DNA from: an uncultured Acidobacteriaceae bacterium
GTDB taxonomy: Bacteria; Acidobacteriota; Terriglobia; Terriglobales; Acidobacteriaceae
Direction: 5' to 3'
Assembly: GCA_903904755.1 (NCBI GenBank)
Contig: CAIVDV010000057.1
Coordinates: 1 to 64,000, forward strand
Length of the DNA: 64,000 nt
The notes under the pieces were generated by a model. That model made no database searches, had not been told where the DNA came from, and saw only the letters and a program-made list of their open reading frames with translations. This document shows, piece after piece, positions 1 through 2,690 of this stretch. Positions within the stretch are counted from its first letter, which is position 1. The number at the start of each line of letters is the position of its first letter. The translations under genes were made by a program, and so were the position numbers.

Positions 1-176
1 CGCGAAGCGGCCTGAAAACAGGCTGTGGAAGTATGGAAATCGCAAAGAACGCGATTCCCACACTCCCACAGCCTCGACGACTACGGGGTTATCCCCTCAA
101 CCCCAGAGCATATGGGGTACGCATTCTGAGGGCAAGGTCATATATTCCCTATACTCAATCACCTGGAGCGATATAC

Positions 177-562: not shown

Positions 563-794
563 GAATGCCGCGCAAACAGGCGGGTAGCTAACCCTTAGCC
601 CGAAAGCCAATTTGGATGTCCTGCAGCCTTCTTTCGGAAGGGTCGGACGCTCTGAGCCAACCGTTCACGCCCTTCTCTTTTTGCGGCACCTCAAACCGCC
701 CCAATCCCCCAAATAGTTCGAAAATCGTCTGCCAGGGCCGACCATGAGTTTTCCAACCCTTTCAGCCGTTGGCTGGAGGGGTTTTGTGTTTTTG
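563..794 (+). repeat. Direct repeat copy A, ending in an intrinsic terminator
   Basis: This is an imperfect direct repeat of 2462-2690. Shared blocks, in the same order, are GAATGCC, AAACAGGCGGGT, CGAAAGCCAAT, AGTTCGAAAATCGTC and a terminator that is nearly identical in both copies. The middle is divergent. The two copies bracket the RHS fragment and its downstream membrane gene. Confidence 0.8.
757..793 (+). terminator. Intrinsic terminator in repeat copy A
   Basis: CCCTTTCAGCC and GGCTGGAGGGG form an 11-bp stem (with G-U pairs) around a GTT loop, followed by the T-rich tail TTTTGTGTTTTT. It ends transcription from the gene at 177-539. Confidence 0.75.
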
Positions 795-834
795 GGAATT
801 TGCGGTACGTTGGTTGCAAGTATCAGCCTGCCCC

Positions 835-1962
835 ATGACCGAAACCAACGCATCCCGCGCCGTCCAGCACGTCAACGTCTTCAGCGGACCGCATTTGATT
901 GGGACCTGGAATCCGGCGGCGGGGAAGGTGTATTACGCCTACTCGGACTGGCTACCACCCCATGGACGAAGACCTGTCCATGGGGGCCCCGAGTTGGGGA
1001 CGAAGCGGTACGAGGCCGACGGCTCGGGAACCTATGTCAACTCGTGGACCAGCCTGCCCTTTGGCGACAACGAGACGGCGCTCGGCACCGGCACGGATGC
1101 GACGGAGCACCACTTCACCGGCAAGGAGCATGACGCGGAAAGTGGGCTGGATTACTTCAAGGCGCGGTATTATCAGTCGCAGACGGGGCGGTGGTTGTTG
1201 CCCGACTGGAGCGAGACGCCGGTACCGGTGCCGTATGCCACCTTCACCAATCCCCAGTCGCTGAATTTGTATACGTATGTGGGGAATAACCCGGTGAATG
1301 CGGTAGATGCGGATGGGCATGCTTTTCAGAATGGTCAGGATGGCAGCAGTCGAACGGGTGAGGGTGTCACGCAGCCTCAAGCATGTGGGACGCAAAATGC
1401 CGACGCGGTTACCAGCAACAACAGCGTTTGCGTCGTCGTGCAGGATGGCACGACGACGCCAACCGCAAGTCCCAGCCAGGCGGCGGCGAACAACCAGGTG
1501 GCCCCACCGCAGGATCTCAGTGCGGATTCGAAGGAGCAGAAGGCAGAAAGGGCTGAGCAAGCCTTGGAAGGTACAGCAAATCTTCTTGACGCTTCTCTTC
1601 GTGCAAAAGCGCTTGGCGGTGCGGTTGCGGCCCTTTCTGAGGCTCCTCCTGCAGCGGCCGTCGTTGCCGTGTATGGGGTGGTCAGCATTTTCGGACAAAC
1701 GATAACGGGAACAGCACAAATCACGGAGGCCTTTACAGGCAACAATTCAGGAGTCGCACACAAAGCGGAGCAAGTCGGGAATATTCTTTCGGGGCCGGCT
1801 GCTGGGCTCATAACCGCCGCTAAAACGCGCAATTTGAACAAAGCAGCGACGGCGGGCAACGTGGAGAGCCTCTACACGGCTGGCACTGGCCTCGTGGACA
1901 AGTCCATTCCATTCCTCCAAAGAGCCGTTGAATTCGGAATGAGTCTACTTGGGGTTCACTGA
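835..1962 (+). CDS. Orphan C-terminal RHS fragment with variable (putative toxin) tip
   Basis: This is the end of an RHS-repeat protein without its shell-forming core. The RHS-associated core motif is clear (HHFTGKEHD, then GLDYFKARYY, then LNLYTYVGNNPVNAVDADG), covering roughly residues 90-165 of 375. After the conserved DADGH comes an unrelated Ala/Gln-rich C-terminal domain of about 210 residues with a hydrophobic stretch, the position where RHS proteins carry exchangeable toxin tips. I could not name a toxin fold. The ATG at 835 is the first usable start beyond the terminator at 757-793, but no good ribosome site is visible, so it may be a silent cassette. A 42-bp palindromic segment interrupts the DWLGTKR motif. 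The next gene is a small membrane protein that may give immunity. Confidence 0.7.
   Translation: MTETNASRAVQHVNVFSGPHLIGTWNPAAGKVYYAYSDWLPPHGRRPVHGGPELGTKRYEADGSGTYVNSWTSLPFGDNETALGTGTDATEHHFTGKEHDAESGLDYFKARYYQSQTGRWLLPDWSETPVPVPYATFTNPQSLNLYTYVGNNPVNAVDADGHAFQNGQDGSSRTGEGVTQPQACGTQNADAVTSNNSVCVVVQDGTTTPTASPSQAAANNQVAPPQDLSADSKEQKAERAEQALEGTANLLDASLRAKALGGAVAALSEAPPAAAVVAVYGVVSIFGQTITGTAQITEAFTGNNSGVAHKAEQVGNILSGPAAGLITAAKTRNLNKAATAGNVESLYTAGTGLVDKSIPFLQRAVEFGMSLLGVH
958..985. repeat. Perfect inverted repeat inside the RHS fragment
   Basis: CCCCATGGAC (958-967) and GTCCATGGGG (976-985) are perfect 10-bp arms around 8 nt. The palindrome lies in about 42 bp of in-frame sequence separating Asp-Trp from Leu-Gly-Thr-Lys of the RHS repeat motif, so it looks like a small insertion. 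Confidence 0.75.
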
Positions 1963-2052
1963 TCTGAGGTTGTGTTTAAGCCTTAGGAGAGCATTCCCCG
2001 AAGTAACTATGCAAACTGCATTGAACGAAGATCAATGAGAAGGTGCCCTTTC

Positions 2053-2454
2053 ATGCGCGGAATCAGAGGACTGTCAATTACGTTTTTCGCGATAATGACA
2101 CTCGTCCTATTTGCCTTTCTTTTGGGCAAATTGACGATTACGGGAATGGCTTTCGCATACATGATACTAATGTGTCTTGGCGTGGTGGTTCTCGCTTTGA
2201 GCATTAAAAACCCTTCAAACGGTAGACGGATTCCTCCTCCAATCCCAAGACCATTTATGTTGACGAGGGCCAGACTCAGCACGCCCTTTCTCAAAGCCAT
2301 AATAATTCTAAGTATCGGTACACTTGTATTTGGAATCTGGTCAAGCCACGATTTGCCTCTTTTGCCGCGCGCAACTGGCATTACGGCAAATGTCTGCATC
2401 ACGGCCGCATTTATCATCGCTCTGCGAAAATCCAAGCGAGAGTCGCAGAAGTAG
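2053..2454 (+). CDS. Small four-helix membrane protein, candidate RHS immunity protein
   Basis: The 133-residue product has about four hydrophobic segments (approximately residues 8-28, 31-52, 83-105 and 112-128) and a basic C-terminal tail (RKSKRESQK). No family is recognised. The ATG at 2053 has AAGGTG 7-8 nt upstream and is preferred over the ATG at 2035, which has no clear ribosome site. It lies 90 bp downstream of the RHS tip on the same strand and is followed by repeat copy B and its terminator. Lower GC than the rest of the window suggests transfer. Immunity is inferred from gene order; an unrelated small membrane protein is the alternative. Confidence 0.5.
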   Translation: MRGIRGLSITFFAIMTLVLFAFLLGKLTITGMAFAYMILMCLGVVVLALSIKNPSNGRRIPPPIPRPFMLTRARLSTPFLKAIIILSIGTLVFGIWSSHDLPLLPRATGITANVCITAAFIIALRKSKRESQK

Positions 2455-2461
2455 GCGAGTT

Positions 2462-2690
2462 GAATGCCAAACAGGCGGGTGGCGCACCCTTCACTCGAAA
2501 GCCAATCTGAGCGTCCAACCCCTCCTTGTTCTGGATGGGTTGGACGAGCCAAGGCCAACGCCGTCCTCAGTGCTTGCACCTCGCCGCTCAGGCCTCAAGC
2601 CTCTCCACCCACAATAGAAGTTCGAAAATCGTCCGCTAGCAGTTTTACCGAACCCTTTCAGCCGTTGGCTGGAGGGGTTTTGTGTTTTTG
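2462..2690 (+). repeat. Direct repeat copy B, ending in an intrinsic terminator
   Basis: This is the second copy of the repeat at 563-794. It starts 8 bp after the stop codon of the membrane gene. The ends are best conserved, including AGTTCGAAAATCGTC and the hairpin. Confidence 0.8.
2652..2689 (+). terminator. Intrinsic terminator in repeat copy B
   Basis: The CCCTTTCAGCC/GGCTGGAGGGG hairpin with GTT loop and TTTTGTGTTTTT tail is the same as in copy A. It ends the RHS cassette. Confidence 0.75.

What the first reader, a model, noticed from the sequence alone, without database searches (positions are those of the whole stretch)
563..2690. RHS C-terminal cassette bounded by direct repeats that each end in a terminator
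The orphan RHS tip plus membrane gene lies between two ~230-bp imperfect repeats with identical hairpin ends; the gene before copy A may belong to a preceding cassette. Repeats at cassette junctions could support homologous exchange or deletion, as known for RHS and CDI tip arrays.
Basis: partly seen in the sequence, partly recalled or inferred. Interest (0 to 1): 0.6.

Follow-up and report, generated by a model that had tools for sequence, protein, structure and literature searches.

The report
Toxin-tip cassette at a tRNA-proline site
The two repeats around this toxin-tip cassette each hold one half of a DNA landing site that, in many related soil bacteria, marks the far end of mobile gene cassettes inserted next to proline tRNA genes, so the repeats are probably scars of a specific cut-and-join enzyme and not merely places for chance recombination.

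Summary
Observation confirmed. Copies A (573-794) and B (2468-2690) are about 70% alike, end in an identical 40-nt terminator, and flank an orphan RHS tip plus a membrane gene. The interpretation changes. Each repeat is composite: (1) an ordinary hairpin element found elsewhere in the genome; (2) a 32-nt motif, here called psi (713-744; damaged in B, 2617-2641); (3) the terminator that otherwise follows this genome's tRNA-Pro genes. Psi is restricted to Acidobacteriota in the scan made: 71 of 398 family genomes matched; 51 of 51 exact-pattern loci were Acidobacteriota. Wherever a tRNA-Pro lay within reach it was upstream of psi on the same strand: 18 of 32 fetched sites, about 0.2 expected, none otherwise. 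Psi looks like the attP half-site of a large serine recombinase (LSR) using the tRNA-Pro 3' end as attB: the GTTCRA motif lies 24 nt from the end in tRNA-Pro and 29 nt in psi, the 5-bp shift published for LSR sites; LSR genes adjoin tRNA-Pro here and in relatives. Cassettes of 0.6-2.3 kb without a recombinase stack behind tRNA-Pro. Relative G013 has the assembled analogue. Recombination and toxicity are untested, and the window contig ends before any tRNA-Pro.

The parts
1..140 (+). Right end of an IS3-type insertion element; contig break
   Evidence: Identical at C57, C76, C3, C75 and C73 contig ends; 91-93% copies in G008/G009; transposase-like C-terminus read by eye in L044
177..539 (+). 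120-aa gene, no family; probably cargo of the preceding cassette
   Evidence: no family
572..659 (+). Copy A, part 1: dispersed hairpin element (model R1)
   Evidence: R1 finds 13 places with E<1e-3 in the own genome, 4 of them its own training sequences
713..744 (+). Copy A, part 2: psi, putative LSR attP half-site, 1 substitution from consensus
   Evidence: consensus
745..794 (+). Copy A, part 3: terminator, as after tRNA-Pro
835..1962 (+). Orphan RHS tip: core 1057-1320, variable C-terminal part 1324-1959; likely start ATG 835
   Evidence: C-terminal part without relatives in 299 other family genomes apart from one match judged spurious
955..991 (+). 37-nt core of an in-frame palindromic insert (PAL) in the RHS core
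   Evidence: absent from C4, C83 tip 1 and C71
2053..2454 (+). 133-aa membrane protein, candidate immunity gene (unproven)
2467..2556 (+). Copy B, part 1: dispersed hairpin element (R1)
2617..2641 (+). Copy B, part 2: psi that lacks about 7 nt of its 3' end
2642..2690 (+). Copy B, part 3: terminator, closest to the one behind tRNA-Pro(GGG) on C64

Best explanation
The RHS tip and its neighbour are the cargo of a small cassette without a recombinase of its own, belonging to a family of elements that insert at the 3' end of tRNA-Pro genes. Psi, inside each repeat, is the P half of the attachment site of a large serine recombinase; the tRNA-Pro T-arm and 3' end is the B half; crossover lies in or beside the shared CCGACCA. 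Insertion leaves tRNA-Pro, then cargo, then psi, then what used to follow the tRNA; in this genome that is the tRNA terminator, which is why both repeats end in one. The recombinase is supplied in trans, for example from the LSR element at tRNA-Pro(CGG). Repeated insertion, helped by homologous recombination in shared start sequences, stacks cassettes and swaps toxin tips. Shown: the anatomy, the psi family, its linkage to tRNA-Pro, LSR genes at tRNA-Pro, arrays. Inferred: that this LSR acts on psi, action in trans, and tip swapping.
For: Psi matches in 71 of 398 family genomes, own included, one of them (G020) only in the terminator half. 51 of 51 exact-pattern loci from a scan of 84,980 species genomes are Acidobacteriota. 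Unrelated flanks. 9 additional degenerate copies against 0 in the reversed control. tRNA-Pro upstream on the same strand in 18 of 32 fetched sites, about 0.18 expected, 0 otherwise; in the scan set 7 of 9 tRNA genes are tRNA-Pro, all 7 upstream on the same strand at 0.8-3.2 kb. Arrays of 2-3 units. GTTCRA to 3' end: 24 nt in 18 of 18 distinct tRNA-Pro, 29 nt in 73 of 76 psi sites; 5-bp ZD shift in PMC3783163 (passages). LSR with Resolvase, Recombinase and Zn-ribbon domains next to tRNA-Pro in own C43, G013 and G253, and directly right of psi in L150. G253: tRNA-Pro, LSR, 16 kb, psi. G013: all three tRNA-Pro carry a psi-ended unit, one with LSR, one with an RHS tip.
Against: The window holds no recombinase and no tRNA-Pro; its linkage to one rests on C4, C64 and relatives. 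Psi in B is damaged. 14 of 32 fetched psi sites show no tRNA-Pro in the fetched upstream stretch, 9 of these with 13 kb or more. Tyrosine integrases, not LSR, adjoin tRNA-Pro in L231 and L240 (57.5% alike) and in L218. The other half of attP (P') resembles inverted psi at about the 3% shuffle level or better in only 3 of 7 ends. The P' sequence is missing behind tRNA-Pro in several small units. Identity between psi and tRNA is only CCGACCA plus GTTCKAA. The 29-nt spacing is partly built in, because most sites were fetched with a fixed-length pattern. The G013 duplication (96% over 279 bp) could come from homologous recombination alone.
Confidence: 0.7

Rival explanations
1. Psi is an attachment site at tRNA-Pro, but of tyrosine integrases; LSR elements merely share the hotspot.
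For: Tyrosine integrases end 71-91 bp from tRNA-Pro in L240 and L231, both psi-ended islands, and another adjoins tRNA-Pro in L218.
Against: Only 7-9 nt are shared between psi and tRNA, whereas such sites usually share a longer tRNA end (recalled). The exact 5-nt offset and the LSR genes at tRNA-Pro or psi fit LSR better.
Confidence: 0.17
2. The repeats spread by tandem duplication and homologous recombination at a tRNA-Pro-linked RHS locus; site-specific recombination is no longer active.
For: Tandem units share S plus RHS start: 96% over 279 bp in G013, 85% over 216 bp between C4 and window; S, the stretch right after the tRNA, is repeated behind psi beyond shuffles in 7 of 18.
Against: Psi recurs in unrelated flanks with unrelated cargo across the family, which local duplication cannot give.
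Confidence: 0.25
3. The repeats are ordinary intergenic repeats plus terminators with no role in mobility.
For: The 5' half is a dispersed intergenic element; terminators are ordinary.
Against: Psi-tRNA-Pro linkage 18 of 32 against 0.18 expected.
Confidence: 0.05

Closest known systems
Large serine recombinase (serine integrase) elements
   Same: LSR gene beside the junction; GTTCRA-type motif 5 bp further out in psi than in tRNA-Pro, as published for attP versus attB (PMC3783163, passages)
   Different: attB is a tRNA 3' end shared by three isoacceptors; many units lack a recombinase and stack in tandem; activity unproven
Orphan rhs-CT/rhsI modules (PMC3150448 and PMC3967940, passages)
   Same: RHS core fragment, variable C-terminus, small gene behind it, repeated modules
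   Different: Separated by terminators and attachment half-sites behind tRNA-Pro; no full-length main rhs seen in this fragmented assembly; immunity unproven
Integron gene cassettes
   Same: Mostly 0.6-2.3 kb, one or two genes, shared 3' site, tandem stacking
   Different: Psi is not a long folded attC (by eye); the linked enzyme is a serine recombinase; the anchor is tRNA-Pro. No search for IntI was made
tRNA-targeted islands with tyrosine integrases (tycheposons recalled; only a search listing seen)
   Same: tRNA anchor, islands with marked ends
   Different: Psi differs from the tRNA 3' end except for CCGACCA and GTTCKAA, and is 5 nt longer

Membership tests
Large serine recombinase element | Gene with Resolvase, Recombinase and zinc-ribbon domains beside the junction | tested here: met
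   Own C43, G013, G253, L150, L235; none in the window itself
Large serine recombinase element | ZD-type motif 5 bp further from the centre in attP than in attB | tested here: met
   29 nt (73 of 76 psi) versus 24 nt (18 of 18 tRNA-Pro); rule in PMC3783163; psi spacing partly fixed by the search pattern
Large serine recombinase element | attP made of two inverted half-sites | tested here: inconclusive
   Inverted similarity reached by at most 14 of 500 shuffles for 3 of 7 P' ends
Large serine recombinase element | Recombination of attP with attB | not testable with these tools
   Needs an assay
Orphan RHS toxin-immunity module | RHS core fragment plus variable C-terminus | tested here: met
Orphan RHS toxin-immunity module | Cognate immunity gene directly behind | tested here: inconclusive
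   Membrane gene present, but its 7 relatives have no convincing RHS neighbour
Orphan RHS toxin-immunity module | Toxic C-terminus | not testable with these tools
   No family in Pfam, NCBIfam, PHROGs or PADLOC
Orphan RHS toxin-immunity module | Full-length main rhs to recombine with | tested here: inconclusive
   Five RHS core places, open frames at most 404 aa, but contigs break in RHS
tRNA island of a tyrosine integrase | Element end repeats the tRNA 3' part | tested here: not met
   Only CCGACCA and GTTCKAA shared, offset 5 nt
Integron cassette | IntI and attC | not tested
   No search for IntI or attC was made

The most novel reading that the evidence does not exclude
Acidobacteriaceae run an integron-like cassette system on a serine recombinase: tRNA-Pro genes are the platforms, psi is the universal cassette end, and one LSR in trans captures, stacks and exchanges small recombinase-less cassettes, RHS toxin tips among them.
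Probability: 0.4. Interest if true: 0.86.

Novelty: new variant of a known kind. Interest (0 to 1): 0.64.

Why it matters
If right, a single 32-nt motif marks the far ends of mobile cassettes and islands throughout a dominant soil family, gives a ready way to map their cargo, and explains how orphan RHS tips gather and move. It would also give a natural LSR whose attB is the 3' end of a tRNA, shared by three isoacceptors.

Tried and rejected
Psi as a tRNA or known RNA: rejected (ARAGORN 0 of 19 loci; Rfam 0 in 8 loci). Psi as a private tRNA remnant of this genome: my first idea, overturned. Empty site at the neighbouring GDSL gene: relatives are not syntenic. RHS as the main cargo of psi units: rejected, RHS found in only 2 of the psi loci searched, L217 and L200. 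Psi in IMG/VR viral contigs: 0. Terminator pattern in genome contigs: 0. C-terminal-part relative in G211: lies in what I read as a TonB-type receptor gene, judged spurious. Literature; no listing described this site, but most subscription papers are not held. Not used: structure prediction.

Dropped before counting: L244 (its match was terminator only, no psi); sites seen twice under two ids were left in separate sets, not added together (for example L181 = L232).

Full report
1. Check. The finding is real. Window copies A (573-794) and B (2468-2690) match in three ungapped blocks (80, 72 and 100%) and at 70% over 222 bp in a whole-genome search. The last 40 nt are identical and form a terminator-like hairpin. 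Between them lie an orphan RHS tip (TIGR03696, E 4.4e-19) and a 133-aa membrane protein. The window is the start of contig C57 of an 83-contig assembly. Its first 140 bp are an IS3-type end shared by five contig ends, so the left side cannot be followed.

2. The repeat is composite. (a) Its 5' half is a dispersed hairpin element: a covariance model from four copies finds 13 places at E<1e-3 in this genome, nine beyond the training copies, most without RHS nearby. (b) Its 3' end equals the terminator behind this genome's tRNA-Pro(TGG) on C4 and tRNA-Pro(GGG) on C64. The same-genus tRNA-Pro genes examined (TGG and CGG) are not followed by it. On C4 the tRNA and terminator run straight into a second RHS tip; C4 and the window agree at 85% over 216 bp through terminator and RHS start. 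(c) Between them is psi, consensus AAAGTTCKAAAATCGTCYDCYAGGGCCGACCA.

3. Psi is a family-wide feature. A DNA search with the C75 copy matched 71 of 398 family genomes (31 of 79 genera; own included; G020 only in the terminator half), nearly all over psi alone. An exact pattern scan of 84,980 species genomes gave 51 loci with 52 distinct sites, all in Acidobacteriota records. Flanks are unrelated. ARAGORN calls no tRNA in 19 loci and Rfam has no match in 8. In the 51 loci, 61 copies were found with up to 6 changes against 0 in reversed sequence; 52 of the 61 are there by selection.

4. Psi is tied to tRNA-Pro. In the 51 scan loci ARAGORN found nine tRNA genes: seven tRNA-Pro, all upstream of psi on its strand at 0.8-3.2 kb, plus one tRNA-Met and one tRNA-Thr. 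In 32 psi sites fetched with 0.1-37.5 kb of upstream sequence, 18 have tRNA-Pro (TGG, GGG or CGG) upstream on the same strand at 0.57-36 kb, none in another orientation; three tRNA-Pro per genome would give about 0.18 by chance over the 589 kb searched. Fourteen sites have none in the stretch fetched: five have under 2.5 kb of sequence, one (13.4 kb) reaches the contig start, eight have about 17-37 kb. The two sets overlap in a few places and were not added. Arrays occur: tRNA-Pro followed by three psi (L223), two psi (L204), and two with the second degenerate (L197). Small units of 0.6-2.3 kb carry mostly one or two genes with unrelated families (phosphoesterase, lactonase, VWA, response regulator, TonB, PIN, TPR).

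5. Mechanism. Eighteen distinct tRNA-Pro genes have GTTCRA exactly 24 nt from the 3' end; 73 of 76 psi sites have 29 nt (for many sites this length was fixed by the search pattern). A 5-bp outward shift of the zinc-domain motif in attP relative to attB is the published rule for serine integrases (PMC3783163, passages read). LSR genes with Resolvase, Recombinase and zinc-ribbon domains adjoin tRNA-Pro(CGG) in this genome (C43), tRNA-Pro(CGG) in G013 and tRNA-Pro(GGG) in G253, and stand directly right of psi in L150. G253 shows tRNA-Pro, LSR, 16 kb, psi. Six of seven tRNA- or psi-adjacent left ends examined share a conserved sequence (TTCTT at the start, GATCA or similar and TCGAA or similar further in); its inverted likeness to psi beats most shuffles in three of seven. 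Against: tyrosine integrases adjoin tRNA-Pro in L231, L240 and L218.

6. The assembled analogue. In G013, same genus, tRNA-Pro(TGG) is followed by an RHS tip (362 aa), a 193-aa gene, psi, and a second, interrupted RHS start that repeats the first at 96% over 279 bp. Its tRNA-Pro(CGG) carries an LSR unit ending in psi 2.9 kb on, and its tRNA-Pro(GGG) a 6.1-kb unit. This is the arrangement proposed for the window: C4 supplies tRNA-Pro and the first tip, C43 the LSR. The link between C4 and C57 is not shown.

7. The pair itself. The C-terminal part has no family and no relative in 299 other family genomes (one match judged spurious). Other tips of this genome look like peptidoglycan enzymes: C71 matches Peptidase_M15_3; C83 tip 1 looks L,D-transpeptidase-like by eye only. 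The membrane gene belongs to a weakly conserved small-protein family seen away from RHS, so immunity is open. No promoter was found in front of the tip, and the terminator before it would block read-through, so the tip is probably silent until moved (inference). In E. coli EC93 an orphan module is instead co-transcribed with the upstream genes (PMC3150448, passages), and in Salmonella an orphan tip is deployed after recombination with the main gene (PMC3967940, passages).

8. Verdict. The repeats most likely are ends of tRNA-Pro-anchored cassettes of LSR type. Strong: psi family and tRNA-Pro linkage. Good: LSR assignment. Open: activity, action in trans, toxin and immunity.

Noticed in passing
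window 955-991; also C83, C26, C3, C13 and C10 of the own genome; L217:6927-6963; L095:298-334: A 37-nt palindromic element (CCACCCC..GGACCTGTCC..GGGGGCCCCG) occurs at 8 own-genome places, 0 in the control. It sits in RHS genes, apparently in frame, at two or more sites, also in G013; it resembles Rickettsia palindromic elements (recalled).
   Followed up: partly
L257:1326-2816 with tRNA-Pro 2754-2830; also L219, L092, L150: The LSR reading frame ends inside the antisense strand of tRNA-Pro (or runs through psi in L150), so its C-terminus is encoded by the attachment half-site and may change on insertion.
   Followed up: no
G013, L217, L218, L205: All three tRNA-Pro genes of one genome are occupied by psi-ended units, one with LSR, one with an RHS tip.
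   Followed up: partly
L231:11895-16149: Three tyrosine-recombinase-like genes in a row next to tRNA-Pro, perhaps a recombinase trio.
   Followed up: no
L040 ~9905, L039, L041, L035, L019 ~1490: The motif TATACCGGGGTAGGGTAT or close variants precede several RHS fragments in this genome, and one copy lies on C48.
   Followed up: no
G008:C16:8080-8129, G009:C5:471205-471261, G011:C40:5005-5055: Stretches of 50-57 nt, 96-98% identical to the tRNA-Pro(TGG) 3' part, lie away from the gene, perhaps scars of a second, tRNA-repeating kind of island.
   Followed up: no
L039 (C71) and L040 (C83): Other orphan RHS tips of this genome: M15-peptidase-type, and L,D-transpeptidase-like (by eye) with a small gene behind it.
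   Followed up: partly
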